DNA of 64,000 nt from contig NZ_JAJQXA010000004.1 of NCBI RefSeq assembly GCF_021245985.1, positions 124,001 to 188,000 on the forward strand, written 5' to 3'. Source of the stretch: Flavobacterium soyae. GTDB taxonomy: Bacteria > Bacteroidota > Bacteroidia > Flavobacteriales > Flavobacteriaceae. This document shows, one piece after another, positions 7,089-58,000 of the stretch; the first letter of the stretch is position 1; every line of letters starts with the position of its first letter. The notes beneath the pieces are model-generated. The model was not told the DNA's origin. It saw nothing but the letters and a program-made list of their open reading frames with translations, and did no database searches. The translations under genes were made by a program, and so were the position numbers.

Positions 7089-8381
7089 TTATTTTTTAAT
7101 TAAGTTGCTAAAATTCGCAGATCTAATATAATTTTGTTTTACTTTATTTACTGAGATCATTTCCATGTATCCCATATTTACAAGATTATTTAAATCCGTA
7201 CGTGCTGTATAATTGGCAATAGAAAATCTATTTTGCACCTCCTTTACAGAAAATACACATTCAGGCTCATCATATAATGTTTTTAAAATTTGAGCTTGAC
7301 GCTCATTAATGTTTGGTATTTTAATGAAACTCACAATTTGTAAATTTTCTTGCTGTTTTTCCTGAATATAATTTTTTAAAGACTCAAAGGCTTTATGCAT
7401 AACTTCAATATGATATGTTATAAAATAAGATAAATCATTTGAATCATTTTCTGTATATAAATAAGCCTTTTCGTATTGATTTTTAGATTCTTGTATTATC
7501 TTTGATATAGATAAATATTCTGTTAACCAATATCCTTTTTTCAAAAGATACCAATAAAACAAAGCTCTTGCCGTTCTTCCGTTTCCGTCTGTAAAAGGGT
7601 GAATCCATCCTATCATAAAATGAATTATAATTCCCTTTACTATAGGATGTATAAAATCTTCTTTTTCTGAGTTAAAAAATTGACAAAGTTCTTTAATTAA
7701 TTTATTTATATCTCCAAAATTTGGTGGTGTATGAACTATTTCACTTGTAGAATAATTAATAACATATATATCATTTGATTCTCTAAAGGTTCCCTCTTCA
7801 TTTTCATTTTTTAAAGTATTCTTTGTCATTAACTTATGAATCTGCAAAAGATTTTCAGGAGTTAATTCTTCACTTTTATTTTTTAAAATATGTTTTATAG
7901 TTGAATAATTATTCACAATCATCTGCTCAGATTTATTTATAGGTTTTGTATCCTTTCTAAGCATATCTTTTGCTTTTTTTCGAGTAGTATTTGCTCCTTC
8001 CATTATACTACTTGAAATAGCTTCTTCCATTATTGAACTTACTAAATATCTAGCTTTATCAGATTCAGGAATTATTTTTTGTGATCCCATATATCCGCCG
8101 ATATTCATATCAAATTCATGCAATGATTTTTGAATGTAATCCGTGTTAAAATAATTAAAAATTACATTTGAAAATTTTATTTGTTTATAATTAATATTTC
8201 TAACTAATTTAATAGTATTCCATAATTCTTCGGGCGATAGTCCATCAACTTTCTTATATTTGACTTTATCCCAATATAAATAACTATTATTCATATCTTT
8301 AATTTTTGCCATAATTTTTGGCTCATTAAGATTTGAAATAATTGAATTATCTAAAACTATTCCTGGTGTACTTTCAATCAT
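7089..8381 (-). CDS. Fic-domain protein (class II, putative AMP transferase) with C-terminal winged helix
   Basis: 430 residues. The Fic core has the catalytic motif HPFTDGNGR at 261-269 and the upstream flap around EGTFRESNDIYV. Residues 124-129 (SSIMEG) fit the class II inhibitory motif [S/T]xxxE[G/N], whose Glu blocks the active site, so this is probably an autoinhibited enzyme. Fic enzymes usually transfer AMP from ATP to a hydroxyl side chain; the target is unknown. The C-terminal 70 residues (INERQAQILKTLYDEP ... FSIANYTARTDLNNLVNMGYM) look like a winged-helix DNA-binding domain. A -7 box (TACATTTG on the minus strand, 8402-8409) lies 20 bp before the start, and a palindrome overlaps the -33 region, which suggests autoregulation. 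No separate antitoxin gene adjoins it. Confidence 0.93.
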   Translation of the reverse strand: MIESTPGIVLDNSIISNLNEPKIMAKIKDMNNSYLYWDKVKYKKVDGLSPEELWNTIKLVRNINYKQIKFSNVIFNYFNTDYIQKSLHEFDMNIGGYMGSQKIIPESDKARYLVSSIMEEAISSSIMEGANTTRKKAKDMLRKDTKPINKSEQMIVNNYSTIKHILKNKSEELTPENLLQIHKLMTKNTLKNENEEGTFRESNDIYVINYSTSEIVHTPPNFGDINKLIKELCQFFNSEKEDFIHPIVKGIIIHFMIGWIHPFTDGNGRTARALFYWYLLKKGYWLTEYLSISKIIQESKNQYEKAYLYTENDSNDLSYFITYHIEVMHKAFESLKNYIQEKQQENLQIVSFIKIPNINERQAQILKTLYDEPECVFSVKEVQNRFSIANYTARTDLNNLVNMGYMEMISVNKVKQNYIRSANFSNLIKK

Positions 8382-9007: not shown

Positions 9008-9439
9008 TTAAGAGCAAGCTATTTTATTAACTCGGTTTTGGTGTCTTCCGCCTTCAAATACTGTTGTTAAAAATGTTTCGACAATTTCAACCGCTTGCGG
9101 AATAGAAGTAAAACGCGCCGGAATACTCACAATGTTAGCATCATTATGTAAACGGGTTAAATACGCAATTTCTTTAGTCCAGCATAATCCAGCTCTCACT
9201 TTAGGGTGTTTATTAACCGTCATTGCAATTCCATTTCCACTTCCGCAGATAACAATTCCAAAATCAGCTTTTCCATCAGATACATCATTCGCAACCGGAT
9301 GTCCAAAATCAGGATAATCAACAGAAGCATCAGTATCAGTTCCATAATTCGTTACTTCATATCCTTTTGCTTCAAGCATTGCAACAATTGCTTTTTTATA
9401 TTCTGGTCCTGCGTGGTCGTTTCCTATCGAAATTTTCAT
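9008..9439 (-). CDS. rpiB: Ribose-5-phosphate isomerase B
   Basis: 143 residues, the family's normal length. It interconverts ribose 5-phosphate and ribulose 5-phosphate in the pentose phosphate pathway. Visible features are the N-terminal GNDHAG (residues 6-11), the active-site Cys in CGSGNGIAM (65-73) and the RLHNDANI motif (96-103) that closes the phosphate site. A -7 box (TAAATTTG on the minus strand, 9467-9474) is 27 bp upstream. The gene borders the large AT-rich non-coding segment. Confidence 0.96.
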   Translation of the reverse strand: MKISIGNDHAGPEYKKAIVAMLEAKGYEVTNYGTDTDASVDYPDFGHPVANDVSDGKADFGIVICGSGNGIAMTVNKHPKVRAGLCWTKEIAYLTRLHNDANIVSIPARFTSIPQAVEIVETFLTTVFEGGRHQNRVNKIACS

Positions 9440-10256
9440 TTTTTTATACTATTAAGTTCTGTAATGCAAATTTACTTAATTAATGAATGTTTGTCACGAA
9501 TTTCACCAATTTTCACGAATTTCTTTTTAGTCGTTATTTTAAATCTTACTGTTAGAAAATCATTATAATAATTAGTGTACATCGTAACTCGAGCGATAGC
9601 GAACAGGCGAAGCAAATTCGTGACAAAAAATGTATCATTTTACAACTATCTTGATATCAAAACCTTATCACTTATCAACATTTTTGATAAGTATATAAGT
9701 ATCTCATAATCAATAAATAATAAACATAACATTTGTTAAAATTTTAGAATGTTAATACCAATTCGTAATTCGTTGATATTCAATTAACTTTAAGTTAACA
9801 TTATTTGTTGATAAGTTCGAAAAGAAAATTAGAAGTTTTTTTTGGTTGTTTGAAAAAAATACCTAATCCAAAACTGGAATTAAATATGCAAGAAAAGTTA
9901 CAGGAATTTTTAGAAAAGTTATCAATATCAAAAATGCCATTTTCAACAAATAGCAGCATATGAACTTATCTACAAAATGAATTCATTTTTGGTTGTCAAC
10001 CGTTGTTAATTAAAATACAAAAAGTCTTATAAATTAATCTTTTAGCTAAAAATAACTATGTTGATAACTCCCAATAACTAAAAGAAACTTCATTTCAATA
10101 CTTTTAAAAATAAATTTATTCGACATATTAACAAGCTATAATAACCATCAAAAATTAATTAAATTTAAAATTTCTTTTTTGTTGTATTTAATATATGTTG
10201 AAAACTAAAAAAGTTGAAAAGGAAAAAAAAATTTTTAGTTTGAAAAAAGAAAGAGT
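9440..10256. other. oriC: Candidate chromosomal replication origin (AT-rich gene-free segment)
   Basis: Non-coding 817 bp, very AT-rich. DnaA-box-like 9-mers: TTATCAACA at 9672-9680 (+), 9806-9814 (-) and 10059-10067 (-); TTATCTACA at 9966-9974 (+); TTATCAATA at 9919-9927 (+). The first lies in an inverted repeat CTTATCAA/TTGATAAG (9671-9691). Genes to the left run mainly on the minus strand (7 of 9) and those to the right mainly on the plus strand (26 of 39), as expected for bidirectional forks leaving this point. A parS cluster lies 17 kb away. dnaA is not adjacent and no perfect TTATCCACA box was seen, so this is an inference. The left part also has a 14-bp inverted repeat, TTTGTCACGAATTT at 9490-9503 and its complement at 9614-9627. 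Confidence 0.5.
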
Positions 10257-10490
10257 TTAAACGATTTTAAGAGGATTGTTTAGATTGTCCAAAATTTCCT
10301 GAACTTGTTCAAAATCGTTTGGATGAACTTTGAGTTTAATCCCGCCGAGCGCATTTGAGTAAAACGGCATAACAGAAAGTGTTACTTCGTTTTCGAAAAA
10401 ATATGGGATTTCATCTTGTTCTAGTAAGTGTTTGAGAACCACTGTTTCGTGCAGATAATTGAATACGGCGATCGTCTTAAAGCTTTCCAT
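10257..10490 (-). CDS. DUF2007-type small protein
   Basis: 77 residues. It begins MESFKTIAVFNYLHETVVLKHLLEQDEIPYFFENE and ends with GGIKLKVHPNDFEQVQEIL. This is the short alpha/beta fold of DUF2007 (putative signal-transducing) proteins: a strand, a helix that follows a switched chain, and a final V-P-x-x-x-x-x-A-x-x-x-L helix. No signal peptide or membrane helix. It is divergent from rnr, 110 bp away. Function unknown. Confidence 0.85.
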   Translation of the reverse strand: MESFKTIAVFNYLHETVVLKHLLEQDEIPYFFENEVTLSVMPFYSNALGGIKLKVHPNDFEQVQEILDNLNNPLKIV

Positions 10491-10600: not shown

Positions 10601-12781
10601 ATGAGTAAGAAAATTAGAAAGCCGATAAAAAAAGAGAAAGATTTCTCTGGGAAGATCCTTAAGATTTTATCGCAAAATGCCAATAAGCCATTTAATTATA
10701 AACAAATAGGAGCGAAGTTAGAACTTGACGATACAAATAGCAGAAACCAGATTATAAAAGATTTAAAAATTCTGGCAGCTCAAAAGAAAATTATAGAAAC
10801 AGAACCTGGAAAATATTTAGTCAAAGCAATTAGTCAGGATTATTACGAAGGAACGATAGATATGACGAGCAGAAAAACGGCATATTTTATTTGTGATGAG
10901 TTCGAAGAAGATGTTTTTATTCCAACTAATAATTTGAATCGTGCCTTAGATAAAGATAAAGTAAAAGTTTACGTTTATAACCGCAGAAAAGGTAAAAGAC
11001 CTGAAGGTGAAGTTATTGAAGTTATAGAAAGAGATAAAACTGAATTTGTTGGAGTAATTGATATTCAGGCAAATTTTGCTTTTGTTTCGACTGCAAATCC
11101 TAAAATGTATACCGATATTTTTATTGCGAAAGATAAAATTGGAGGGGCAGAAAATGGAGATGTAGTTTTAGTTAAAATTGATGAATGGCCAAAAAGAGCT
11201 GATAGTCCTTTTGGGACTGTAATTCGTGTTCTAGGAAAACCTGGAGAACATAATACTGAGATTCATGCGATTTTAGCAGAATACGGACTCCCTGCAGATT
11301 TTCCGGTTGAAGTAGAAGTTTTTGCACAAAAACTGGATACATCTATTCAGGAATCTGAAATTGCAAAACGTCGTGATATGCGTGATACGCTTACGTTTAC
11401 GATAGATCCAAAAGATGCAAAAGATTTTGATGATGCGTTGTCTTTTAAAAAGTTAGAGAATGGAAATTTTGAAATCGGAATCCACATTGCCGATGTTTCG
11501 TATTATCTCGAAGAAGGAACAATCCTGGATGATGAAGCTTATCAACGTGCAACTTCGGTTTATTTAGTAGATAGAGTAGTGCCAATGCTTCCTGAAGTAT
11601 TGTCTAATTTTGCGTGTTCGCTTCGACCAAATGAAGAAAAATATACATTCTCTGCAGTATTTGAAGTTTCTCCAGCTTCTCAGGTTATTAACCAATGGTT
11701 TGGAAGAACAGTAATTTATTCAGATCAGCGTTTTGCTTATGAAGAAGCACAATATATCATTGAAACAAAAGACAATACAATTCCGGCTGATATTTCAATT
11801 ACCGGAGAATCTTATGTTGTTTCAGATGAAATCGTAGAGGCAACTTTAAAATTAGATGAATTAGCGAAGATTTTAAGAAAGAAAAGAATGCAGCAAGGCG
11901 CTATTTCTTTTGATAAAGTTGAAGTAAAATTTAACTTGAATGAAGAAGGAGAACCGGAAGGTGTATATTTTAAAATTTCAAAAGATGCCAATCATTTGAT
12001 TGAAGAATTTATGCTTTTGGCCAATAGAAAAGTGGCTGAATATATTGGCAAACAAAAGAAAACCTTTGTTTACCGTATTCACGACGAACCAAACGAAGAC
12101 AAATTGATTGCGATGCAAACCGTAATTGCTAAATTTGGTTATAAAATTGATTTTAGAAATAAAGGCGATATTGCAAAATCATTGAATTCTTTAATGGAAG
12201 AAGTAAATGGTAAAAAAGAGCAAAACTTAATTGATACTCTTGCTATTAGAAGTATGAGTAAAGCTAAATATTCGACAGATAATATTGGTCATTATGGTTT
12301 AGCTTTTGATTATTACAGCCATTTTACATCGCCAATTCGTCGTTATCCAGACGTTATGGTACACCGTTTGTTACAGTATTATCTGGATGGCGGAGCTTCT
12401 GTAGACGAAGAAACATATGAAACAAAAAGTCTGCATTGTTCTAATATGGAAAATTTAGCAACTAATGCTGAAAGAGATAGTATTAAATACATGCAGGTTA
12501 AATATATGCAGGATCATCAGGATGAAGAATTTCTTGGTGTTATTTCTGGTGTTACAGAATGGGGAATTTATGTTGAAATCGTTTCTAATAAATGCGAAGG
12601 AATGGTAAGAATCAGAGAAATAAAAGATGATTATTATACTTTTGATGAAAAACAATATGCATTGGTTGGAGCTACTTCAAACAGCATTTTGCAACTTGGG
12701 GACGAAATTTATGTGAAAGTAAAAAATGCCGATTTAGTTAAAAAACAACTAGATTTTCATTTTTTGCGACGAGCAGAATAA
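10601..12781 (+). CDS. rnr: Ribonuclease R
   Basis: 726 residues, typical of RNase R, a 3'-to-5' exoribonuclease that degrades structured RNA. Domains in order: N-terminal winged helix (1-75), cold-shock domains (about 85-240), the RNB catalytic domain with the metal-binding DPKDAKDFDDAL (about 265-276) and HIADVSYYLEEGT, then FDYYSHFTSPIRRYPD, and a C-terminal S1 domain (EEFLGVISGVTEWGIYVEI). It is the first gene of a probable operon with the genes at 12806 and 13486 (24 and 11 bp gaps). Confidence 0.97.
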   Translation: MSKKIRKPIKKEKDFSGKILKILSQNANKPFNYKQIGAKLELDDTNSRNQIIKDLKILAAQKKIIETEPGKYLVKAISQDYYEGTIDMTSRKTAYFICDEFEEDVFIPTNNLNRALDKDKVKVYVYNRRKGKRPEGEVIEVIERDKTEFVGVIDIQANFAFVSTANPKMYTDIFIAKDKIGGAENGDVVLVKIDEWPKRADSPFGTVIRVLGKPGEHNTEIHAILAEYGLPADFPVEVEVFAQKLDTSIQESEIAKRRDMRDTLTFTIDPKDAKDFDDALSFKKLENGNFEIGIHIADVSYYLEEGTILDDEAYQRATSVYLVDRVVPMLPEVLSNFACSLRPNEEKYTFSAVFEVSPASQVINQWFGRTVIYSDQRFAYEEAQYIIETKDNTIPADISITGESYVVSDEIVEATLKLDELAKILRKKRMQQGAISFDKVEVKFNLNEEGEPEGVYFKISKDANHLIEEFMLLANRKVAEYIGKQKKTFVYRIHDEPNEDKLIAMQTVIAKFGYKIDFRNKGDIAKSLNSLMEEVNGKKEQNLIDTLAIRSMSKAKYSTDNIGHYGLAFDYYSHFTSPIRRYPDVMVHRLLQYYLDGGASVDEETYETKSLHCSNMENLATNAERDSIKYMQVKYMQDHQDEEFLGVISGVTEWGIYVEIVSNKCEGMVRIREIKDDYYTFDEKQYALVGATSNSILQLGDEIYVKVKNADLVKKQLDFHFLRRAE

Positions 12782-26419: not shown

Positions 26420-26835
26420 TAAACTTTAATTACGAAACCGAATTTTCTTTAGATAATGAACAAGCTTTTACAGATTGGTTGAGCGCTGTTATTGTTTCTG
26501 AAAAGAAGAATGAGGGAGAAATAAATTATATTTTTTGTGACGATGAATACCTGCATAAAATAAACGTAGAGTATTTAGATCACGATACACTAACAGATAT
26601 TATCAGTTTTGATTATACAGTTGGTAACGAAATCAGCGGAGATATTTTTGTTTCTGTAGAAAGAGTTGAAGATAATGCTAAAGATTTTAATGTTTCTTTC
26701 GAAGAAGAATTGAAACGTGTATTGGTTCACGGCATATTACATTACTGTGGATACAAAGATAAAAGTGATGCAGATGCAGAACTTATGCGTTCAAAAGAAG
26801 ATGAAAAGATTGCGATGTTTCACGTGGAACAGTAG
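26416..26835 (+). CDS. ybeY: Endoribonuclease YbeY (16S rRNA maturation)
   Basis: 139 residues, of family length. It processes the 3' end of 16S rRNA and takes part in ribosome quality control. The metal-binding motif is HGILHYCGYKDKSDADAE, in which the third His of the HxxxHxxxxxH pattern is Asp; I believe this substitution is usual in Bacteroidota. LTDIISFDY precedes it. The last codons (MFHVEQ, 26815-26835) contain a parS-like palindrome, so the C-terminus is constrained by the DNA site. Confidence 0.95.
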   Translation: MINFNYETEFSLDNEQAFTDWLSAVIVSEKKNEGEINYIFCDDEYLHKINVEYLDHDTLTDIISFDYTVGNEISGDIFVSVERVEDNAKDFNVSFEEELKRVLVHGILHYCGYKDKSDADAELMRSKEDEKIAMFHVEQ

Positions 26836-27190
26836 AAAATTTGTTTCAGGTTTTTATTGTTTCAGGTTTTACGTTTCATGTTCAAAACGCAATTACACGA
26901 TAATAAAAGTTGTTCCACGTGAAACACTTTTAATTTAAAATATTTTTAAAAAAAAGTGTTTCACGTGGAACATATAAAACAGATTTAAATAAAGTATAAT
27001 ACTCAAAAGATGTTTCACGTGGAACATGAGATTTAGATTTATTTTGAGTTCGGTTTATATGTTTCACGTGAAATATTATTTATTAGGTTTCGGGTTTTGA
27101 AATAAAACATGAAGTGTTCCACGTGGAACTTTTAAGTTTGGTTCTGAAACTTGAAACTTGAAACAAAATAAAACCGTTCCACGTGGAACA
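26816..27190. other. parS: Cluster of seven parS-like ParB-binding sites
   Basis: 16-mers of the form TGTTNCACGTGNAACA centred on CACGTG: 26816-26831 (TGTTTCACGTGGAACA), 26911-26926 (TGTTCCACGTGAAACA), 26957-26972, 27011-27026, 27060-27075 (last half AAATA), 27115-27130 and 27175-27190 (first base C). They agree with the parS consensus known from ParB-ParS chromosome segregation. The non-coding 418 bp between ybeY and mnmG consist largely of these sites separated by AT-rich text. parA/parB are not in the window. Confidence 0.88.
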
Positions 27191-27253
27191 AAAGAAAAAT
27201 AAAGTTAATTCTGAGAACCGCCTTAAACGGTTTGCAGAGAATAATAAAACAAA

Positions 27254-29125
27254 ATGTTTTTAGAAGAATACGATGTTATTGTAGTTGGTGCTGGACATGC
27301 AGGATCTGAAGCCGCGGCAGCGGCCGCAAATTTAGGATCCAAAACTTTGTTGGTTACAATGAGTTTGCAGAACATAGCCCAGATGTCTTGCAATCCTGCA
27401 ATGGGAGGAATTGCAAAAGGACAAATTGTTCGTGAGATCGACGCGCTTGGAGGTTACTCCGGAATTGTTTCAGATCGAACTGCAATTCAGTTTAAGATGT
27501 TGAACAAATCAAAAGGGCCAGCAATGTGGTCGCCGAGAGTTCAAAGTGATCGAATGCGTTTTGCAGAAGAATGGAGATTGATGTTGGAGGGAACTCCAAA
27601 TTTAGATTTTTATCAAGAAATGGTAAAAGGTCTGATTATCGAGAACGGAAAGATAAAAGGAATTAGAACTTCGCTTGGAGTTGAGATTCGTTCCAAATCG
27701 GTTGTGTTGACAAACGGAACTTTTTTGAACGGATTAATTCATGTTGGAGAAAAACAATTTGGTGGAGGTAGAGCAGGCGAAAGTGCCGCAACCGGAATTA
27801 CCGAAGATTTGATCAAAGCAGGATTTGAAGCCGGAAGAATGAAAACAGGAACGCCGCCACGAGTTGATGGACGTTCTTTGGATTATTCTAAAATGAACGA
27901 AGAAAAAGGAGATGCAGTTCCAGATAAGTTTTCTTATTCGGATTTAACGGTTCCGTTAACGCATCAAAGATCTTGTCACATGACATACACTTCGCTTGAA
28001 GTTCATGATATTTTGAGAGAAGGTTTTGATCGTTCGCCAATGTTCAACGGAAGAATAAAAAGTTTAGGTCCGAGATATTGCCCATCGATCGAAGATAAGA
28101 TTAATCGTTTTGCAGATAAAGAACGCCACCAGCTTTTTGTTGAACCAGAAGGATGGAATACTTGTGAAGTTTATGTAAACGGATTTTCAACTTCACTTCC
28201 GGAGGATATTCAATTTAAAGCATTGAGTTCTGTTGCCGGTTTTGAGAAAGTGAAATTCTTCCGTCCGGGTTATGCAATCGAATATGATTATTTCCCGCCG
28301 ACGCAATTGAAACATACTTTGGAAACAAAGTTAGTTGAAGGATTATATTTTGCCGGACAAATTAATGGAACGACAGGATATGAAGAAGCAGCTTCGCAAG
28401 GTTTGATGGCTGGAATAAATGCGCATTTAAAAGTGCACGAAAAAGCGCCATTAATTTTAAAACGTGATGAAGCGTATATCGGAGTTTTGATCGACGACTT
28501 AATTACGAAAGGAACGGAAGAACCTTATCGTATGTTTACATCAAGAGCAGAATATAGAACATTGTTGCGACAAGATAATGCCGATTTCAGATTGACACCA
28601 ATGTCGCATGAAATTGGTCTTGCATCTGAAGCTCGTTTGCGAAGAATGGAAAAGAAATTAAATGAGTCTGAAAAGATGGTTGCGTTCTTCAAAGAAACAA
28701 GTGTTTCGGTTGCTGAAACAAATCCAATTTTAGAAGCAAAAGAAACTGCCCCAATTACGCAAGGCGATAAAATGTTTAAAGTATTCTCACGTCCGCAAAT
28801 TGATTTAGAGGATATGCTGAAATTTGAAAAAGTAAAAGCATATGTTGAAGAAAATGATTTAGACAAAGAGATTTTAGAGCAAGCCGAAATCCAGGTTAAA
28901 TATTCTGGTTATATCGAAAAGGAAAGAAATAACGCCGATAAACTAACTCGTTTAGAAGAAGTAAAAATTCCAGAGAATTTCGATTATAATAAAATCAAAT
29001 CAATGTCGATTGAAGCGAAACAAAAATTAAGTAAAATTCGACCAGTTACAATTTCTCAGGCATCAAGAATCAGCGGTGTATCACCAAGTGATATTTCTGT
29101 GCTTTTGATTTATATGGGAAGGTAG
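27254..29125 (+). CDS. mnmG: tRNA uridine-5-carboxymethylaminomethyl modification enzyme MnmG
   Basis: 623 residues. With MnmE it makes the cmnm5 modification at wobble U34 of several tRNAs, using FAD and methylene-THF. Visible: FAD-binding GAGHAGSEAAAAAANLG at 12-28, MSCNPAMGGIAKGQIVREIDALGG, TGTPPRVDGRSLDY and the catalytic Cys region GPRYCPSIEDKINRF. The C-terminus (SIEAKQKLSKIRPVTISQASRISGVSPSDISVLLIYMGR) is the MnmE-binding domain. A hairpin AACCG/CGGTT (27213-27229) lies in its leader. The ATG at 27254 follows the parS cluster. Confidence 0.97.
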   Translation: MFLEEYDVIVVGAGHAGSEAAAAAANLGSKTLLVTMSLQNIAQMSCNPAMGGIAKGQIVREIDALGGYSGIVSDRTAIQFKMLNKSKGPAMWSPRVQSDRMRFAEEWRLMLEGTPNLDFYQEMVKGLIIENGKIKGIRTSLGVEIRSKSVVLTNGTFLNGLIHVGEKQFGGGRAGESAATGITEDLIKAGFEAGRMKTGTPPRVDGRSLDYSKMNEEKGDAVPDKFSYSDLTVPLTHQRSCHMTYTSLEVHDILREGFDRSPMFNGRIKSLGPRYCPSIEDKINRFADKERHQLFVEPEGWNTCEVYVNGFSTSLPEDIQFKALSSVAGFEKVKFFRPGYAIEYDYFPPTQLKHTLETKLVEGLYFAGQINGTTGYEEAASQGLMAGINAHLKVHEKAPLILKRDEAYIGVLIDDLITKGTEEPYRMFTSRAEYRTLLRQDNADFRLTPMSHEIGLASEARLRRMEKKLNESEKMVAFFKETSVSVAETNPILEAKETAPITQGDKMFKVFSRPQIDLEDMLKFEKVKAYVEENDLDKEILEQAEIQVKYSGYIEKERNNADKLTRLEEVKIPENFDYNKIKSMSIEAKQKLSKIRPVTISQASRISGVSPSDISVLLIYMGR

Positions 29126-29134
29126 AGATTTTAA

Positions 29135-29290
29135 ATTTTAGATTTCTGAGTTTAGATTTTAGATTTTAGATTTTTCTTGGATCGATTACTAGTAATTTAT
29201 TTGATTTGTTTCACGTGAAACAAATTGAAGGGAATTAAAATTTTAGATTCTAATAAAACAATCTAAAATCTAAACTCAGAAATCTAAAAT
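29135..29290. repeat. Perfect 31-bp inverted repeat around a parS-like site
   Basis: Arms 29135-29165 and 29260-29290 are exact reverse complements (the left starts ATTTTAGATTTCTGAGTTTA). They are built from GATTTTA-type heptamers also found at 34436-34468. The parS-like site 29207-29222 lies in the loop. Confidence 0.75.
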
Positions 29291-29312
29291 GGTATTTGTT
29301 CCACGTGAAACT
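29207..29312. other. parS: Two parS-like sites downstream of mnmG
   Basis: 29207-29222 is TGTTTCACGTGAAACA, identical to the classical B. subtilis-type parS; 29297-29312 is TGTTCCACGTGAAACT, with one off-consensus base. Together with the seven sites before mnmG they bracket the gene. Confidence 0.88.
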
Positions 29313-48892: not shown

Positions 48893-50367
48893 TTCGAAAA
48901 ACTACTTTATCTTTTTTTAAAGTTTTCATTTTATTTAGTATAATTCTCTTTACTAAATCGCGTACCTATGCTCAAACAGCAATAGTTGGGCAGCAGCTTC
49001 CTTTCGATAGAATTTGTGCTGGTTTAATAGTAAACGGAACACCTTTTAATGAATACTACGCCACATTCAGCTACTTAAATTTTCCGGCAGGTACTACTTT
49101 TGAAGTAGAACTTTCAGATGATTTGGGAAGTTTTACAACCCCTACTGCTACAACAAAAATTTCGTTTGTAGATGATCCTTCAGCGCAGCAGCAAACCATA
49201 AAGTTTGCTATTCCTACAGATTTAAAAGGATCAAACACATACAGCCTTCGCGTTAAAAGTAATACAGCAACGCCTGTTTACAGTCAGAGGTTTAAGAATT
49301 TCCAGGATCAGACATCGTTTCCTGCTTTTTACAGAATTTATACAGATAAATTTTTTATTAATAATAAAGAAGCCAATGCAACTATTTGTTCAGGCGGAAA
49401 TTTAAGTCTTTCAGTTTACAACCCAACACCTGCAGATGTACCTTCATCTCCTGCCAATTATCCAAATTTAACGTATAAATGGTATAAAGATGATGTATTA
49501 ATTGCTGGACAAAGTGGTACAACGTTAGTGGCAAATGCCCCGGGGGTTTATTATGCCCAGATAAATTATGGAGGCTGTGATGATGATAACTTTAGTTCTA
49601 ATCGTGTTACAGTAGTATCTTCAAGCGGAGGATCTGCAGTAACGGTAGATTCCAGCTTAGGAAATCCTTTTTGTTCAAACGGATCAGGGACTGTTTTAAC
49701 GGCAACATCGGGTAACAGTTACGTTTGGAAAAAAGATGGTGTTGTAATTGCACAAACATCTCGCAGTATTACTACAAATGAATCCGGTATTTATTCAGTT
49801 GAGGTTGATTTTGGCGGTTGTAAAGCAACAGGAAGTATTGATTTAAAAAGCAATAGTTTCACGGCGAGTATAGATGTTCCGGATACTTATGAGCTTAAAG
49901 AAGGAGAAACATTAAATGTATCTGTAACTACTGATGCAGTGACTCCAAAATTCGAATGGTTTTTAAATAATAATGCAATAAGCGGAGCCAGCAGCGCAAG
50001 TTATCTGGTAGCCGTAAGAGGTCTTTATAAAGTTAAAATTTCACAGGAATCAGGATGTATAGCTTCAAAAGAATTTACATTTAGAGTTACTTCAGAAAAT
50101 GATGCAAAAACCTCAGTTATTCCAAATATTGTTAAGCTGGGCGGCACTTATCCTTACTGGAATATCCCAGATGTTTATAAAACGGCGTCGACCAAACTAA
50201 TAATTTTAAGTTCAAATGGAGAGGTGATGTATGATGATGTTGGCAGCAATTACGATCCGGAAAGCAGCTTTTTAATAAAAGATTTTAAAAATGTAAATCC
50301 AGTTTATTACTATGTCATTCAATCAGACACAGGTGAAAAAAAAGGATCAATAACTGTGATTAAATAA
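48889..50367 (+). CDS. sprC: SprC-like gliding protein with Ig-like repeats and CHU_C-type tail
   Basis: 492 residues. A signal peptide (about 1-28, ending TYAQ) precedes Ig-like beta domains that carry TYKWYKDDVLIAGQSGTTLVANAPGVYYAQI and SYVWKKDGVVIAQTSRSITTNESGIYSVEVDF, a PKD/Ig pattern. The C-terminal 80 residues (VIPNIVKLGGTYPYWNIPDVYKTASTKLIILSSNGEVMYDDV ... YYYVIQSDTGEKKGSITVIK) match the type B (CHU_C-like) sorting domain of type IX secretion. In F. johnsoniae sprC is needed for full SprB display. Overlaps sprD by one base (TAATG). Confidence 0.85.
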   Translation: MIRKTTLSFFKVFILFSIILFTKSRTYAQTAIVGQQLPFDRICAGLIVNGTPFNEYYATFSYLNFPAGTTFEVELSDDLGSFTTPTATTKISFVDDPSAQQQTIKFAIPTDLKGSNTYSLRVKSNTATPVYSQRFKNFQDQTSFPAFYRIYTDKFFINNKEANATICSGGNLSLSVYNPTPADVPSSPANYPNLTYKWYKDDVLIAGQSGTTLVANAPGVYYAQINYGGCDDDNFSSNRVTVVSSSGGSAVTVDSSLGNPFCSNGSGTVLTATSGNSYVWKKDGVVIAQTSRSITTNESGIYSVEVDFGGCKATGSIDLKSNSFTASIDVPDTYELKEGETLNVSVTTDAVTPKFEWFLNNNAISGASSASYLVAVRGLYKVKISQESGCIASKEFTFRVTSENDAKTSVIPNIVKLGGTYPYWNIPDVYKTASTKLIILSSNGEVMYDDVGSNYDPESSFLIKDFKNVNPVYYYVIQSDTGEKKGSITVIK

Positions 50368-53300
50368 TGAAGAAAATTTTACTATTCATAACTTTATTTT
50401 ACGGTTTTTCTAATGTACTCTATTCTCAGGACCAAAATGAGAATGGAGTTGTTTCGTTTTCATTACCTATCAGAAATTCATTAAAGTTTAATAGATATTT
50501 AATAAACCCTGCATTTAGTTTTGTTCGCGAAACAAACGCATATGCAAGTTTCTATAATAAAAGACAATGGGTGCAGTTTGACAATGCACCGCAAACATAT
50601 TTAGCCAATTACTCTGGACGATTCAGAGAAAATGAAGCTTTTGCAATTGGTTTATTCCAGCAAAATTATGGTTTAATGACCGTTTTTGGCGGAGTTGTCA
50701 ATTTTGCTCATAATATCGTTTTGCAGGAAGACAGTAACCTTACTTTTGGTTTAAACGCGGGCGTATACCAAAGCGGTTTAGACAAAGGAAAAATTATATC
50801 TGATGATACGGATATTTTAAACGGGGATTATCCCTCAAATACAATGCTTACCGTAAATCCGGGGATTAACTACGGAACAGCGTTTATGGATTTTGGATTA
50901 TCGGTAAACAATTTAATTCTTTACAATTTTGGTTCAGGTGTTGTAAAAGAAGATCCGGAAAGAGCAATCGAATTACATGCCATGTACACCGGCTACATTG
51001 ACAGTTATGGTTTTTTTGAACAAAGTAAATTTTCAGGAATTGTAAAAACAGAAATTAAAAAAGATAAAACGGTTCTTTCAGGGCTTGCAATGCTTTCGCT
51101 GAAACAAGGAGTTTGGGCGCAGGCAGGTTACAATACTCTATATGGAGTTTCTGCAGGTTTAGGGGTTAATATTTCACCTAGCATTGCAATCGAATATAAC
51201 TATGAAAGAGGAATGGGCAATTTTACAAATATGGGAGGTTCTCATGAATTTGCAATTGCTTATAAATTTAAAAATAGAAATTACTATTATGGTGATGATG
51301 AAGAGGGAGCATTAATAGATCCTTCGAGAACGACATCTAAACCAGTAATTGCCAAACCAAAAACAAATGCGGCTCCGGTAACAAGAGTAGATGGAGCTGA
51401 GAAAACGAGACTAGCAGCAGAAGCAAAAGCAAAAGCCGATGCCGAAGCAAAACAAGCCAGACTTGCCGCTGCAGAAAAAGTGAAGGCTGATGCCGATGCT
51501 GCTGCAAAAGCAAAATTAGAAGCAGATAACAAAGCTAAAGCTGATGCCGAAGCTCTTAAGATAAAATTAGCCGCCGATGCTAAAGCTAAAGCTGATGCAG
51601 CAGCAGCAGCAAGAGCGCAGACAGCAACAACAAACAGAGCCGTTGCTGCACAACAAAAAACACAAGCACAATTAGCTGCAGATAAAGCAAGAGCTGATGC
51701 TGAGGCAAGAAGAATAAAATTAGCTGCAGATAATAAAGCCAGAGTGGACGCTGCTGCCGCTGCGAGAGTACAAGCTCAAGCAAACAAACCATCAGCAACA
51801 GCTGCACAAAAAACACAAGCACAATTAGCTGCAGATAAAGCAAGAGCTGATGCTGAAGCATTAAAAATAAAACTTGCGGCCGATGCGAAAGCTAAGGCAG
51901 ATGCAGAAGCTAAAGCGAAACAAGCAACTGCTGCAACGCCGCCGGCTCCGCAAAAAACACAAGCACAATTAAATGCTGAAAAAGCTAAGGCAGATGCAGA
52001 GGCACTTAAAATAAAGCTAGCTGCAGATGCGAAAGCTAAAGCTGATGCTGCAGAGGCAAAACGTAAAGCAGATGCTAAAGCAAAAGCAGAAGAGGCAGAC
52101 TTACAATCAATCTTGGCTGCAGATGCTAAAGCAAAAGCAGATTCTGATGCGCTTCAGGCTAGATTAGCCGCAGAAGCTAAAGCAAAAGCCGCTTCTGAAG
52201 CAAAAACAAAAGCTTCGATTGATGCTGCAAATAGAGCTAAAGCGGCAGCTGCTGCTAAAGCAAAAGCTGCAGAAGAAGCAGCCCTAAAAGAAAAATTAGC
52301 AGCTGATGCAAAAGCGAAAGCAGATGCAGAAGCTAGACAAGCAATAATAGCTGCAGAAGCTAAAGCAAAAGCCGATGCTGAAGCATTAAAAATAAAATTA
52401 GCTGCCGATGCAAAAGCGAAAGCCGACGCAGAAGCCCAGGCTAAGTTAGCTGCAGAAGCAAAAGCAAAAGCAGATGCAGAAGCACTTCAAGCTAAATTAG
52501 TTGCTGATGCAAAAGCGAAAGCAGATGCAGAGGCTCAGGCAAAACTTGATGCAGAAGCAAAAGCAAAAGCAGATGCAGAAGCACTTCAGGCTAAACTAGC
52601 AGCCGACGCCAAAGCAAAAGCCGATGCTGAAGCATTACAGGCAAAACTTGTAGCAGAAGCAAAAGCTAAGGCTGACGCAGAAGCTCTACAAGCAAAACAA
52701 GCTGCCGATGCAAAAGTGAAAGCTGACGAAGAGGCACGTCAGGCTAAATTAGCAGCTGATGCAAAAGCAAAAGCTGATGCTGAAGCAGAAAAAACGAGAT
52801 TAGCTGCAGAAGCGAAAGCAAAAGCAGATATGGAAGCTTTACAAGCGAAATTAATTGCTGACGCAAGAGTTAAAGCCGATGCAGAAGCAACTGCAAAAGC
52901 AAAAGCAGAAGCAGAAGAAAAACAATTAAGAGAAGCTGAAGAAGCACGTCAGGCTAAATTAGCGGCTGACGCAAAAGCTAAGGCCGATGCAGAAGCACTT
53001 CAAGCGAAATTAGCAGCCGACGCAAAAGCTAAGGCCGATGCAGAAGCACTTCAAGCGAAATTAGCAGCCGACGCAAAAGCTAAGGCAGATGCAGAAGCAT
53101 TACAAGCTAAACTTGCTGCAGACGCAAAAGCAAAAGCCGATGCAGAAGCATTACAGGCTAAGTTAGCTGCGGAGGCAAAAGCTAAGGCCGATGCAGAAGC
53201 ACTTCAAGCAAAATTAGCTGCTGATGCCAAAGCAAAAGCCGACGCAGAAGCACTTCAAGCAAAATTAGCAGCAGACGCCAAAGCAAAAGCTGATGCAGAA

Positions 53301-54914
53301 GCATTACAGGCTAAGTTAGCTGCGGACGCAAAAGCAAAGGCTGATGCAGAAGCATTACAGGCTAAGTTAGCTGCGGACGCAAAAGCTAAGGCCGATGCAG
53401 AAGCACTTCAAGCAAAATTAGCTGCTGATGCCAAAGCTAAAGCTGACGCAGAAGCATTACAAGCTAAGTTAGCAGCTGATGCCAAAGCAAAAGCCGACGC
53501 AGAAGCACTTCAAGCAAAACTAGCAGCTGACGCCAAGGCAAAAGCTGACGCAGAAGCATTACAAGCTAAGTTAGCAGCTGATGCCAAAGCAAAAGCCGAC
53601 GCAGAAGCATTACAGGCTAAGTTAGCTGCTGATGCCAAAGCAAAAGCCGACGCAGAAGCACTTCAAGCAAAATTAGCAGCTGATGCCAAAGCAAAAGCTG
53701 ACGCAGAAGCACTTCAAGCAAAATTAGCAGCTGATGCCAAAGCAAAAGCTGACGCAGAAGCACTTCAAGCAAAATTAGCAGCTGATGCCAAAGCAAAAGC
53801 CGACGCAGAAGCACTTCAAGCAAAATTAGCTGCTGATGCCAAAGCAAAAGCTGACGCAGAAGCATTACAAGCTAAGTTAACGGCAGATGCAAAAGCTAAG
53901 GCAGATGCAGAAGCGGCAGAAAAACAAAAAGCTGACGAAGAAGCAAGAAAATTAAAAGAAGAAGAAGAACGTCAGGCAAGACTAGCCGCAGAGAAAGCAA
54001 AAGCTGATGCAGAAGCAGCAGCGGCCAGAGCTGCAGCAGCGTCAAAAGATGAAACAGCAAAAGCTATTGAAAGCTTAACTCAGTCAATTGAAAGTTCAGG
54101 TAAAACACAAAATGATTTATTAGATCAGTTTAAATCGACGATAGCTAATAAACAAAAAGACCTGAATGATTTAAAAGAAGAGAACGACTTAAGTGAAAAA
54201 GGTATTTATAAAGAACCAAAACCTTTCAAAAGTGTAGCTGCAGAAAACAGTCAGATAGAAGCTTTAAAATCACAGCTGGCAGATGCTAGTAAAGCACAGA
54301 AAGACGAGATTGCTAAGCTGACGAATTTATATAACGAAAGACTTAAAAAAGTTCCAAACAAAAATGATGCTTTAAACAAAGCTTATCTTGAGAAGATAAA
54401 CGAATTGAAAGCAGCGCAGTTAAAAATGGAACTGGAAGGTGCAGCATTACTTGCCGATTTAGAGCGTATTAAAGCTGAAACTGAAATTGAGAAAAAACGT
54501 AGAATTAAGCGTGCGGCATACGAAAATGATCAAGGTAGATATGCTCAGGATTTAGCTGCCCTTAAACGTATTAAGGAAACAACGAAAGTAAGCAGTACAC
54601 CGCTCACAGCTGCAGATTTTGATTTTGGTGAAGACCAGTCAAATATGCAGATTATTAAGAATATTAAAAATTCTGAAAGTGGTTATTATATGATTCTTGC
54701 AGTACACAGCAGTGTTGAAAAACGTGATGAGTTCTTAACGAAAGCTGTTGCATCTGGAGTTTCAAATATTAATTTCTTTTACAATATAACAACAAGTAAA
54801 TATTATATCTATTACGAGAAATTCGATGGTCTGCAAGAAGCAACTAAGGCATTAGAAGCTAAAGGAAAATCACCATACAACGGAAAAATGGCAATCGTAA
54901 AAGTGGAGAATTAA
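50367..54914 (+). CDS. sprD: SprD-like protein: PorP/SprF barrel, Ala/Lys-rich helix, SPOR-like end
   Basis: 1515 residues. After a signal peptide, residues 25-315 resemble the PorP/SprF outer-membrane family (FNRYLINPAFSFVRETNAYASFYNKRQW ... HEFAIAYKF). Residues about 343-1222 are an Ala/Lys/Asp/Glu-rich TolA-like helix; 860-1186 hold about 19 near-identical 17-residue units (DAKAKADAEALQAKLAA). The C-terminal 300 residues form a coiled coil (about 1225-1390) and a SPOR-like domain (YYMILAVHSSVEKRDEFLTKAV...). In F. johnsoniae SprD supports SprB display in gliding. A straight single helix of this length would reach about 130 nm, far beyond periplasm thickness, so it must fold back or lie sideways. 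Confidence 0.88.
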   Translation: MKKILLFITLFYGFSNVLYSQDQNENGVVSFSLPIRNSLKFNRYLINPAFSFVRETNAYASFYNKRQWVQFDNAPQTYLANYSGRFRENEAFAIGLFQQNYGLMTVFGGVVNFAHNIVLQEDSNLTFGLNAGVYQSGLDKGKIISDDTDILNGDYPSNTMLTVNPGINYGTAFMDFGLSVNNLILYNFGSGVVKEDPERAIELHAMYTGYIDSYGFFEQSKFSGIVKTEIKKDKTVLSGLAMLSLKQGVWAQAGYNTLYGVSAGLGVNISPSIAIEYNYERGMGNFTNMGGSHEFAIAYKFKNRNYYYGDDEEGALIDPSRTTSKPVIAKPKTNAAPVTRVDGAEKTRLAAEAKAKADAEAKQARLAAAEKVKADADAAAKAKLEADNKAKADAEALKIKLAADAKAKADAAAAARAQTATTNRAVAAQQKTQAQLAADKARADAEARRIKLAADNKARVDAAAAARVQAQANKPSATAAQKTQAQLAADKARADAEALKIKLAADAKAKADAEAKAKQATAATPPAPQKTQAQLNAEKAKADAEALKIKLAADAKAKADAAEAKRKADAKAKAEEADLQSILAADAKAKADSDALQARLAAEAKAKAASEAKTKASIDAANRAKAAAAAKAKAAEEAALKEKLAADAKAKADAEARQAIIAAEAKAKADAEALKIKLAADAKAKADAEAQAKLAAEAKAKADAEALQAKLVADAKAKADAEAQAKLDAEAKAKADAEALQAKLAADAKAKADAEALQAKLVAEAKAKADAEALQAKQAADAKVKADEEARQAKLAADAKAKADAEAEKTRLAAEAKAKADMEALQAKLIADARVKADAEATAKAKAEAEEKQLREAEEARQAKLAADAKAKADAEALQAKLAADAKAKADAEALQAKLAADAKAKADAEALQAKLAADAKAKADAEALQAKLAAEAKAKADAEALQAKLAADAKAKADAEALQAKLAADAKAKADAEALQAKLAADAKAKADAEALQAKLAADAKAKADAEALQAKLAADAKAKADAEALQAKLAADAKAKADAEALQAKLAADAKAKADAEALQAKLAADAKAKADAEALQAKLAADAKAKADAEALQAKLAADAKAKADAEALQAKLAADAKAKADAEALQAKLAADAKAKADAEALQAKLAADAKAKADAEALQAKLTADAKAKADAEAAEKQKADEEARKLKEEEERQARLAAEKAKADAEAAAARAAAASKDETAKAIESLTQSIESSGKTQNDLLDQFKSTIANKQKDLNDLKEENDLSEKGIYKEPKPFKSVAAENSQIEALKSQLADASKAQKDEIAKLTNLYNERLKKVPNKNDALNKAYLEKINELKAAQLKMELEGAALLADLERIKAETEIEKKRRIKRAAYENDQGRYAQDLAALKRIKETTKVSSTPLTAADFDFGEDQSNMQIIKNIKNSESGYYMILAVHSSVEKRDEFLTKAVASGVSNINFFYNITTSKYYIYYEKFDGLQEATKALEAKGKSPYNGKMAIVKVEN
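52949..53926 (+). repeat. 51-bp tandem repeat array inside sprD
   Basis: About 19 units of 51 bp, each encoding ADAKAKADAEALQAKLA with mostly silent third-position changes. More diverged copies run on both sides. Multiple of 3, so unit gain or loss keeps the frame. Confidence 0.9.
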
Positions 54915-55041: not shown

Positions 55042-58000
55042 ATGAAAAAACCTACTACTTTAAAATTAGTTTTAACTGTATTATTTTTTATACAGAGTTT
55101 TATTATGTTCTCTCAAAAGAATTTCGCCCCTCGTTTTGACACGAGTTTAAAAGGTGACATGCTTTTGATAGGTAATAATATTTTGAATAGAGATAACAAT
55201 AGTAATGGCCAACGACCAAACGATGCCTTTAATTCTACGAACCAGAACAATAACGACCTTAATATGCAATATATTGATGTCGATAGTGATAATACCACTT
55301 TTAGTTCAAGTTCTGCTACTTTAGCTATTCCACAAACAAGTAGAGAATGTTATAAGATTGTTTACGCGGGGCTTTATTGGGCTGGTGTTTACAGTCAAGC
55401 TTCTGTAACTAATGGGACTGTAAATCGTGCCAATTTAGGTTCGATTAAGTTTAAGCTTCCTGGCCAGACTACTTATAATGATATTACAGGGTCGTTAATT
55501 TACGATTACTATCCTACAACGTCAAACGGTAGTCAGATGCCGTATGCATATTACTATGATGCAACAGCATTAGTGCAGGCATTAGCAAATCCTGAAGGAG
55601 TTTACACCGCAGCAAATATTATTTCAGGAAGAGGTGGTATAAATGGTGGTTTTGCAGCGGGCTGGAATTTATTTATAGTATATGAGGATCCAAAATCGTC
55701 TGCAAAATATATTACATCTTTTGACGGTCTTAGTTGGATCCAGGCATCCAGCGCACCGGTAACTTATGATATTTCTGGATTCAAAACTATTCCAACAGGA
55801 GTTGTAAAAGCAAAATTAGCTTTTGCTGCTTTAGAGGGAGATGTTAATCTTACAGGAGATAAATATTCTATAAATAATACAGATATTTTTACTGCAGAGC
55901 GCCCAGTTAATAACTTCTTCAATAGTACAATTAATGACACTAACGGGCCTTATACAGCGAGAACTCCAAACAGCGGTAATACACTTGGTTTTGAAGCAGG
56001 TATTATAAACCTTAATAATGCTTCAAATTCAATTATTAAAAACAACGATACTTCGGCACAATTAAAGCTTAGTACTGTAGGAGATGGTTATGGACTTTTC
56101 TTCAATGCTTTTAACGTTGAAATTATTGAACCGAAAATTGTTTTAACTAAAATTGTAAAAAATAATGCCGGGGTAGATATTGGAGGCCAAAATGTTACTT
56201 TAGGCCAGCAGTTAAATTATGAAATTGGTTTTAAAAATACAGGTAATGATAATGCCACCGAGTTTACGATTAGAGACCAGCTGCCTATTAATATTATTTT
56301 TAATTATCCGGCAGATATTGTTTCGTTACCTACAGGGGTAACGGTACAAAGTTATAATGCTGCAACAAGAAATATTGTTTTTGCAGTAAACAACAACGTT
56401 GTTAAAGTTGGTGATCCTGAAAAAATTATTAGTTTCAAGGTTCAGGTTGTTCCTGATTGTCAAAGTTTAAGCGAGGCTTGTTCTAACAGTATTGACAACT
56501 CTGCTTATGCTACATACAAAGGGCAGCAAAACACTAGTTTTATAATTTCTGATGACCCGAGTGTTAATACCAATACAGGATGTATTTTAGTTCCAAAAGC
56601 TACAAACTTTTTAGTTGGGGTAGATGGTTGTAAATATACTTCGAATGTTACTTTATGTGGGGAGAACATTAATTTAACAGCTGCTAATGGTTATACATCT
56701 TATACGTGGTATAGTGATGAAGCAAGAACAAATCAAATAGGTACAGGACAAACATTAAATGTAAAAGATCCTGGAACGTATTATGTTTACAATCTTGCAG
56801 CTGCACCTTGTAGATCAATTTATCAATCATTTGTTGTAACAAGATTTGGAAGCACAGTAGAGAATCCGGTAATACCATTTGCAGATCAGGTAGTAACTTG
56901 TTCTAATGATGGAAAAAAATTACCAAATATTTTCTTGTGCGGTTCAAATGCAGTCAGACAAATTACTACAAGCATTTCTGATGCAACAAGTATTGTTTGG
57001 GAAAAATTAGATGAAGGAAGCTGTGCTGCTGTAACGAATCAGAATTGTGCCAACGAAAATACAGCCTGTACGTGGGCCAGTGTAGGTACCGGACAAAATT
57101 ATACAGCAAACCAGGCGGGACAATTTCGAGTAACATTAAATTATGCGGGAGGATGTTTCAACCGTTTTTATTTTAATGTTTATACGAATTTGTTAACTCC
57201 AACAGAAACGCATAAGGATATTATTTGTGGTGTTTCCGGAAGTATTACGATTGGCGGAGTGCCGGCAGGGTACGAATATGCTATCAGTACAGATCCTAAT
57301 GGAACGATTGGAGCATATCAGGCAAGTAATACTTTTAATATTACAAACCCAAATTCATATACTGTTCACATTAGACAAGTAGGTGTAACTACTAATCCAT
57401 GTATTTTTACTGTTCCAAATATTCTTATTAGAAAAGTAGATTTACAGATTAGCACAGCTGTTACGCAGCCAACTTGTTATGGAGATAAAGGAAGTATAAA
57501 AGTTGGCGCTCTTAATATTGATCCGCAATATTATTATTACTTATATAATAATGCGACAAATGTCCTTGTTAACAGTGCTGGTCCTATTGCGGCTTCAGAT
57601 TATACTTTTGCAAATTTAAATCCCGGAATTACATATAGGGTAAGAGTTACAAATGCAGCTGTTGGTGGTACACCATCCCCGACTTGTGATGTGTCAAGTG
57701 TTATTCCTATAAATAATATTGCCGCTCCTCTAGTTGCAACGGCTGCCTTAACAACTCCGCTTACGGCATGCAGCGATGGTAAAATTACTTTATCAGGTTC
57801 TGGAGGAACAGCTCCATATTTCTTCTTTGTAAACGGGTCTGCTACTTTCCTTACTTCAAATGAAATTACTTTTACAACAGCAGGAACATACAATATTCGT
57901 TTAGTTGATTCTAATAACTGTGAGGCAACAACATCGATTACAGTTACAGGAAATCCTAAACCAGTTTACACTGTAACAAATACTGAAATTAATTGTAACG

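What the first reader, a model, noticed from the sequence alone, without database searches (positions are those of the whole stretch)
9440..10256. Candidate oriC away from dnaA
A gene-free AT-rich segment holds five TTATCNACA-like or TTATCAATA words, including an inverted pair. Coding strand bias switches here from minus to plus, and parS lies 17 kb to the right.
Basis: inference. Interest (0 to 1): 0.7.

Follow-up and report, generated by a model that had tools for sequence, protein, structure and literature searches.

The report
Flavobacterium chromosome origin, far from dnaA
This short gene-free stretch is very probably the place where this Flavobacterium starts copying its chromosome; it is well supported but of an already known kind, since in this phylum the origin usually lies far from the dnaA gene.

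Summary
The gap between rpiB and a small DUF2007 gene upstream of rnr (9440-10256, 77.5% AT) holds four exact TTATCNACA words and one TTATCAATA; shuffles of the same DNA give 0.11 on average, never five in 5000. Most of the gap is a non-coding block of about 550 bp conserved across 35 Flavobacterium species. It carries ten positionally fixed DnaA-box-like sites on both strands, against 0.4 for permuted patterns. In complete Flavobacterium genomes the block sits at the minus-to-plus GC-skew switch. Sampling round two whole chromosomes shows that switch here and none at dnaA, which lies about 0.6-1.3 Mb away. All five exact parS palindromes of this genome lie 16.6-19 kb to the right, around mnmG. 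Published software calls in two related genera put the origin at mnmG. In Flavobacterium mnmG has no DnaA-box cluster and never the skew minimum, so it looks like the ParB centromere. Verdict: the chromosomal oriC, most likely DnaA-dependent and bidirectional, with the AT-rich stretch about 10080-10200 as best unwinding candidate. An oriC far from dnaA is already reported as common in Bacteroidetes, so this is a well-resolved member of a known kind. DnaA binding and initiation in cells are untested.

The parts
9650..10220 (.). Candidate oriC core: conserved non-coding block
   Evidence: Conserved at roughly 70-95% per 25-bp bin across 30 genus loci while flanking 9526-9625 is 23-49%; aligned in 12 more distant species, most at 72-77% over about 500 bp
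9672..9680 (+). DnaA box TTATCAACA
   Evidence: position kept, mostly as TTATTAACA, in relatives
9750..9758 (-). DnaA-box-like site GTATTAACA
   Evidence: positionally conserved, mean 1.0 mismatch to TTATYAACA in 35 species (whose coordinates are 1 too low)
9806..9814 (-). DnaA box TTATCAACA
   Evidence: mean 0.26 mismatch in 35 species
9919..9927 (+). DnaA box TTATCAATA
   Evidence: conserved
9940..9948 (+). DnaA-box-like site TTTTCAACA
   Evidence: conserved; TTATCAACA in some relatives
9966..9974 (+). DnaA box TTATCTACA
   Evidence: conserved
10004..10012 (-). DnaA-box-like site TAATTAACA
   Evidence: conserved, mean 1.17 mismatches
10059..10067 (-). DnaA box TTATCAACA, the best conserved box
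   Evidence: mean 0.11 mismatch in 35 species
10080..10200 (.). Candidate DNA-unwinding element (AT 83-85%)
   Evidence: lowest nearest-neighbour stability of the segment, 99.6th percentile of the 64-kb window; holds a block about 10125-10148 conserved in distant species; assignment is inference
10125..10133 (+). DnaA-box-like site ATATTAACA inside the AT-rich stretch
   Evidence: conserved
10196..10204 (-). DnaA-box-like site TTTTCAACA
   Evidence: conserved
9008..9439 (-). rpiB, left neighbour (landmark)
   Evidence: PF02502, E 8.6e-57
10257..10490 (-). DUF2007-like small gene, right neighbour
   Evidence: PF09413, 24.0 bits, just under the 25.7 cut-off
10601..12781 (+). rnr (RNase R), first plus-strand gene to the right (landmark)
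   Evidence: PF00773, E 8.5e-110
26816..27190 (.). parS cluster upstream of mnmG: exact palindromes at 26816, 26911, 26957, 27011; near-copies at about 27060, 27115, 27175
29207..29312 (.). parS downstream of mnmG: exact at 29207, near-copy at about 29297

Best explanation
The segment is the chromosomal replication origin (oriC) of this Flavobacterium. Inferred mechanism: DnaA, made from a gene about a megabase away, binds an array of about ten boxes on both strands of a 550-bp block and oligomerises. It melts the adjoining AT-rich stretch (best candidate about 10080-10200), and two replisomes leave in opposite directions. The origin region is then segregated by ParB loaded on the parS cluster around mnmG, 17 kb away. 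Shown here: the box array, its positional conservation, its place at the skew switch, parS proximity and distance from dnaA. Inferred: DnaA binding, the site of melting, initiation in cells and ParB loading.
For: Five words against 0.11 expected. Ten box-like sites fixed in position across 35 species: permuted patterns give 0.42 on average and at most 6, and none of 300 reach 10 (at 1.6 mean mismatches). The triplet TTATCAATA-TTATCTACA-(inverted)TTATCAACA occurs once in each of 28 of 150 genus genomes, never twice, with no hits to the reversed control. The sustained minus-to-plus skew switch round G218 (20 samples) falls at this locus; the same switch lies at this block in G198. The 40-kb local skew minimum is at the gap in 9 of 11 complete genomes. 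In this genome the window minimum is at 10174. parS lies about 13-50 kb from rnr, on the rnr side, in 25 of 25 complete genomes. dnaA lies about 0.6-1.3 Mb away with no skew switch and, in this genome, no box cluster. In G102 and G173 extra DNA separates the block from rnr, yet the block stays intact.
Against: No binding or replication data exist here. The window's own genome is a draft, so its whole-chromosome skew could not be drawn, and contig C44 has a plus-skew block at 40-80 kb on the left arm. Local skew partly follows gene orientation: fourfold-site skew of minus genes at 14-23 kb is still negative. G227 shows no local minimum and G149's lies about 1.4 kb off. In ten other genera the local skew at rnr is mostly unclear.
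Confidence: 0.95

Rival explanations
1. The origin is at mnmG (gidA), 17 kb to the right, as Ori-Finder 2022 calls in the related genera Mariniflexile and Algorimicrobium suggest; the DnaA-box cluster here would be a secondary DnaA-binding locus.
For: PMC11278836 and PMC12843772 give mnmG-adjacent oriC for Flavobacteriaceae chromosomes. mnmG is a classic origin neighbour in other phyla. Fourfold-site skew of minus genes between 14 and 23 kb is negative.
Against: No exact TTATCNACA or TTATCAATA lies near mnmG in this window, and there are 0-2 scattered boxes within 1.5 kb of mnmG in 11 relatives. The local skew minimum is never at mnmG in those 11. The gaps around mnmG hold parS copies instead. 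One of the two papers labels mnmG as oriC in the text and as ter in the figure legend. Ori-Finder scores indicator genes, so a nearby mnmG can pull a call (PMC10225481; that mnmG is such an indicator for this lineage is inference).
Confidence: 0.03
2. The block is a transcriptional control region for rpiB, DUF2007 or rnr, with DnaA boxes acting as DnaA regulatory sites.
For: It lies between genes and some promoters must be here; DnaA regulates some promoters in other bacteria (general knowledge).
Against: Extra DNA between the block and rnr in G102 and G173 leaves the block intact. The block is at the chromosome-wide skew switch. About 550 bp of conserved non-coding DNA with ten boxes is far more than a promoter needs.
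Confidence: 0.02
3. A chance or low-complexity cluster in AT-rich DNA.
For: The segment is 77.5% AT and the box is AT-rich.
Against: No shuffle of the segment reaches the count, and the sites are conserved in position across 35 species.
Confidence: 0.001

Closest known systems
Predicted chromosomal oriCs of Bacteroidetes in DoriC / Ori-Finder (e.g. Prevotella intermedia OMA14, PMC4755523; Elizabethkingia meningoseptica, PMC8994065)
   Same: Intergenic DnaA-box cluster at the GC-skew switch, far from dnaA; PMC4755523 states this is common in the phylum.
   Different: Those rest on software prediction in single genomes. Here the block is delimited by cross-species conservation, about ten fixed boxes, neighbour genes rpiB / DUF2007 / rnr, and parS proximity. 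Whether those oriCs share the rpiB-rnr neighbourhood was not tested.
Ori-Finder calls at mnmG in Flavobacteriaceae (Mariniflexile, PMC11278836; Algorimicrobium, PMC12843772)
   Same: Same family, same wider neighbourhood (mnmG lies 17 kb from the block here), away from dnaA.
   Different: In Flavobacterium the DnaA boxes and skew minimum are at rpiB-rnr, and the gaps around mnmG hold parS copies.
E. coli oriC (between gidA/mnmG and mioC)
   Same: Multiple DnaA boxes in both orientations in an intergenic region, an AT-rich unwinding stretch, away from dnaA.
   Different: Box consensus here is TTAT(C/T)AACA-like rather than TTATNCACA; the neighbours differ. The E. coli details are from general knowledge and were not tested.

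Membership tests
DnaA-dependent bacterial chromosomal oriC | Cluster of DnaA boxes well above chance | tested here: met
   5 words against 0.11 expected, 0 of 5000 shuffles; ten positionally conserved sites
DnaA-dependent bacterial chromosomal oriC | Located at the chromosome-wide minus-to-plus GC-skew switch | tested here: met
   Met in complete relatives G218 and G198 and locally in 9 of 11; the window's own chromosome is a draft, where only contig C44 was sampled
DnaA-dependent bacterial chromosomal oriC | AT-rich, easily melted DNA-unwinding element next to the boxes | tested here: inconclusive
   Stretch at about 10080-10200 is at the 99.6th percentile of instability in the window; melting not measurable here
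DnaA-dependent bacterial chromosomal oriC | Conserved block and genomic position among relatives | tested here: met
DnaA-dependent bacterial chromosomal oriC | A dnaA gene in the genome | tested here: met
   Intact 482-codon frame on C33, E 4.8e-62
DnaA-dependent bacterial chromosomal oriC | Adjacency to dnaA/dnaN (usual, not required) | tested here: not met
   dnaA lies on another contig, and about 0.6-1.3 Mb away in complete relatives
DnaA-dependent bacterial chromosomal oriC | parS cluster within the origin region | tested here: met
DnaA-dependent bacterial chromosomal oriC | DnaA binds and replication starts here in cells | not testable with these tools
   Needs footprinting and marker-frequency sequencing
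oriC at mnmG (rival location) | DnaA-box cluster and skew minimum at mnmG | tested here: not met

The most novel reading that the evidence does not exclude
Across Flavobacterium, and perhaps the whole family, the true origin is one conserved block of about ten boxes between rpiB and rnr. It would use a shifted DnaA box, TTAT(C/T)AACA, that default software underscores, and the published mnmG-adjacent origins in Flavobacteriaceae would really be the ParB centromere about 15 kb away.
Probability: 0.5. Interest if true: 0.35.

Novelty: new member of a known kind. Interest (0 to 1): 0.28.

Why it matters
A precise origin lets growth-rate estimates from coverage, replichore analysis, oriC plasmids and cell-cycle work be done properly in Flavobacterium, where several complete genome records start at dnaA instead. 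It also warns that mnmG-based origin calls in this family may mark the centromere rather than the origin.

Tried and rejected
Strict TTATCNACA counting understates the origin in distant species because position 5 drifts to T; permuted-pattern tests on the alignment replaced it. Fourfold-site skew was tried to separate replication from transcription effects near mnmG; counts are small and follow gene strand, so it decides little. Local skew at rnr in ten other genera was mostly uninformative; sampling round two of them fits an origin near rnr for G011 and leaves G045 unresolved. Alignment coordinates printed are one base too low. Loci L003 and L036 at first seemed to lack the boxes; longer stretches showed extra DNA between the block and rnr. 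DnaA-trio motifs were not scored because they are too common in such AT-rich DNA. No paper mapping a Flavobacterium origin by experiment was found in the searchable library, which does not hold most subscription journals.

Full report
What is there. The window is bases 124001-188000 of contig C44 of a 5.21-Mb, 84-contig draft. The RNase R gene shows it to be Flavobacterium, 99% identical to that of Flavobacterium sp. CF108. The finding covers the gap between rpiB (9008-9439, minus strand) and a small DUF2007-like gene (10257-10490, minus), followed by rnr (10601-12781, plus). The gap is 77.5% AT.

The words. Four exact TTATCNACA (9672+, 9806-, 9966+, 10059-) and one TTATCAATA (9919+) are present. 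Shuffles of the same 817 bases that keep dinucleotides average 0.11 such words; none of 5000 reach five. Genome-wide there are 391 TTATCNACA, so four in 396 bp is expected about 0.002 times. The inverted pairs extend beyond the 9-mer, e.g. 9804-9818 with 9962-9976.

Conservation. In 30 genus loci the non-coding stretch from about 9650 to 10220 is about as conserved as the coding DNA beside it, while 9526-9625 is not. In 12 complete genomes of more distant Flavobacterium species the block still aligns, in most at 72-77% over about 500 bp. Ten positions keep a match to TTATYAACA within 1.6 mean mismatches across 35 species; 300 permuted patterns average 0.42 such positions, with a maximum of 6. 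Drift is often C to T at position 5. The triplet at 9919/9966/10059 occurs exactly once in each of 28 of 150 genus genomes, with no hit to the reversed control. In G102 and G173 extra DNA lies between the block and rnr, but the block and its boxes are still there. So the block is a unit of its own and not simply the rnr leader.

Replication geometry. The window's cumulative GC-skew minimum is at 10174. Twenty 20-kb samples round the complete 6,096,872-bp relative G218 are minus on the left arm and plus on the right, with the sustained minus-to-plus switch in the interval holding this locus (one sample at 4.8 Mb is at zero). One-kb bins put the switch at 1162-1163 kb, where the box triplet lies (1162653-1162801). 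The reverse switch is at about 3.3-3.6 Mb. In G198 the switch is at 2100332, again in the block. In 11 complete genomes, 40 kb round the locus, the minimum is at the gap in nine, 1.4 kb away in G149 and unclear in G227; it is never at mnmG. dnaA lies about 0.6-1.3 Mb from rnr, in DNA without a skew switch, and in this genome without a box cluster.

Centromere. All five exact parS palindromes of the genome are at 26816-29222, on both sides of mnmG, with near-copies beside them. In 25 of 25 complete relatives exact parS sites lie about 13-50 kb from rnr on the rnr side; one genome (G144) has an extra site elsewhere.

Mechanism. Best reading: a DnaA-dependent bidirectional origin. DnaA would load on the box array and melt the least stable stretch (about 10080-10200, 99.6th percentile of instability in the window), which holds a strongly conserved segment at about 10125-10148. 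The box array, conservation, skew position and parS proximity are shown; binding, melting, initiation and ParB loading are inferred.

Rivals. Two papers on related genera, using Ori-Finder 2022, name mnmG as the origin neighbour (PMC11278836, PMC12843772). In Flavobacterium that site has parS copies, no box cluster and no skew minimum. A purely regulatory role and chance are much weaker.

Novelty. PMC4755523 states that in Bacteroidetes oriC is commonly far from dnaA, and E. meningoseptica has a predicted oriC 1.9 Mb in coordinates from dnaA (PMC8994065). So the kind is known. The additions are the precise block, its fixed box array and the likely correction of mnmG-based calls.

Limits. The own chromosome could not be drawn whole. 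Local skew is partly a gene-orientation effect. Outside the genus the location is only suggestive. The box search used a consensus recognised by resemblance, not a measured Flavobacterium DnaA specificity.

Noticed in passing
window 26816-27190 and 29207-29312: Dense parS cluster on both sides of mnmG: five exact palindromes and at least four near-copies, the only exact ones in the genome; probably the ParB centromere.
   Followed up: yes
window 9490-9627: Species-specific insert of about 100 bp, absent from relatives, flanked by the perfect inverted repeat TTTGTCACGAATTT / AAATTCGTGACAAA; looks like a small palindromic repeat element beside the origin block.
   Followed up: no
G000 contig C44:40001-80000 (L082, L083): Plus-skew block on the otherwise minus-skew left arm, 55-95 kb from the origin; possible inversion or acquired island.
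   Followed up: no
window 50367-54914: 1515-aa protein with a long Ala/Lys/Asp/Glu-rich 17-residue repeat (51-bp tandem unit, 32.6 copies, 52248-53914), N-terminal part resembling the PorP/SprF type by eye.
   Followed up: no
window 55042-64000: Giant repetitive secreted protein, more than 2986 aa, running off the window; adhesin-like by eye.
   Followed up: no
G000 contig C10:5466-7032: Six TTATCGACA words in one orientation at spacings of about 250-520 bp, probably a coding repeat rather than DnaA sites.
   Followed up: no
G189:C1:1660812-1661296 and G241:C1:583464-583948: The dnaA domain hit is split by stops or a frameshift in two complete Flavobacterium genomes; probably sequencing error in an essential gene.
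   Followed up: no
window 7089-8381: Fic/DOC-family protein with a DeoR-like HTH, near the origin on its left.
   Followed up: no
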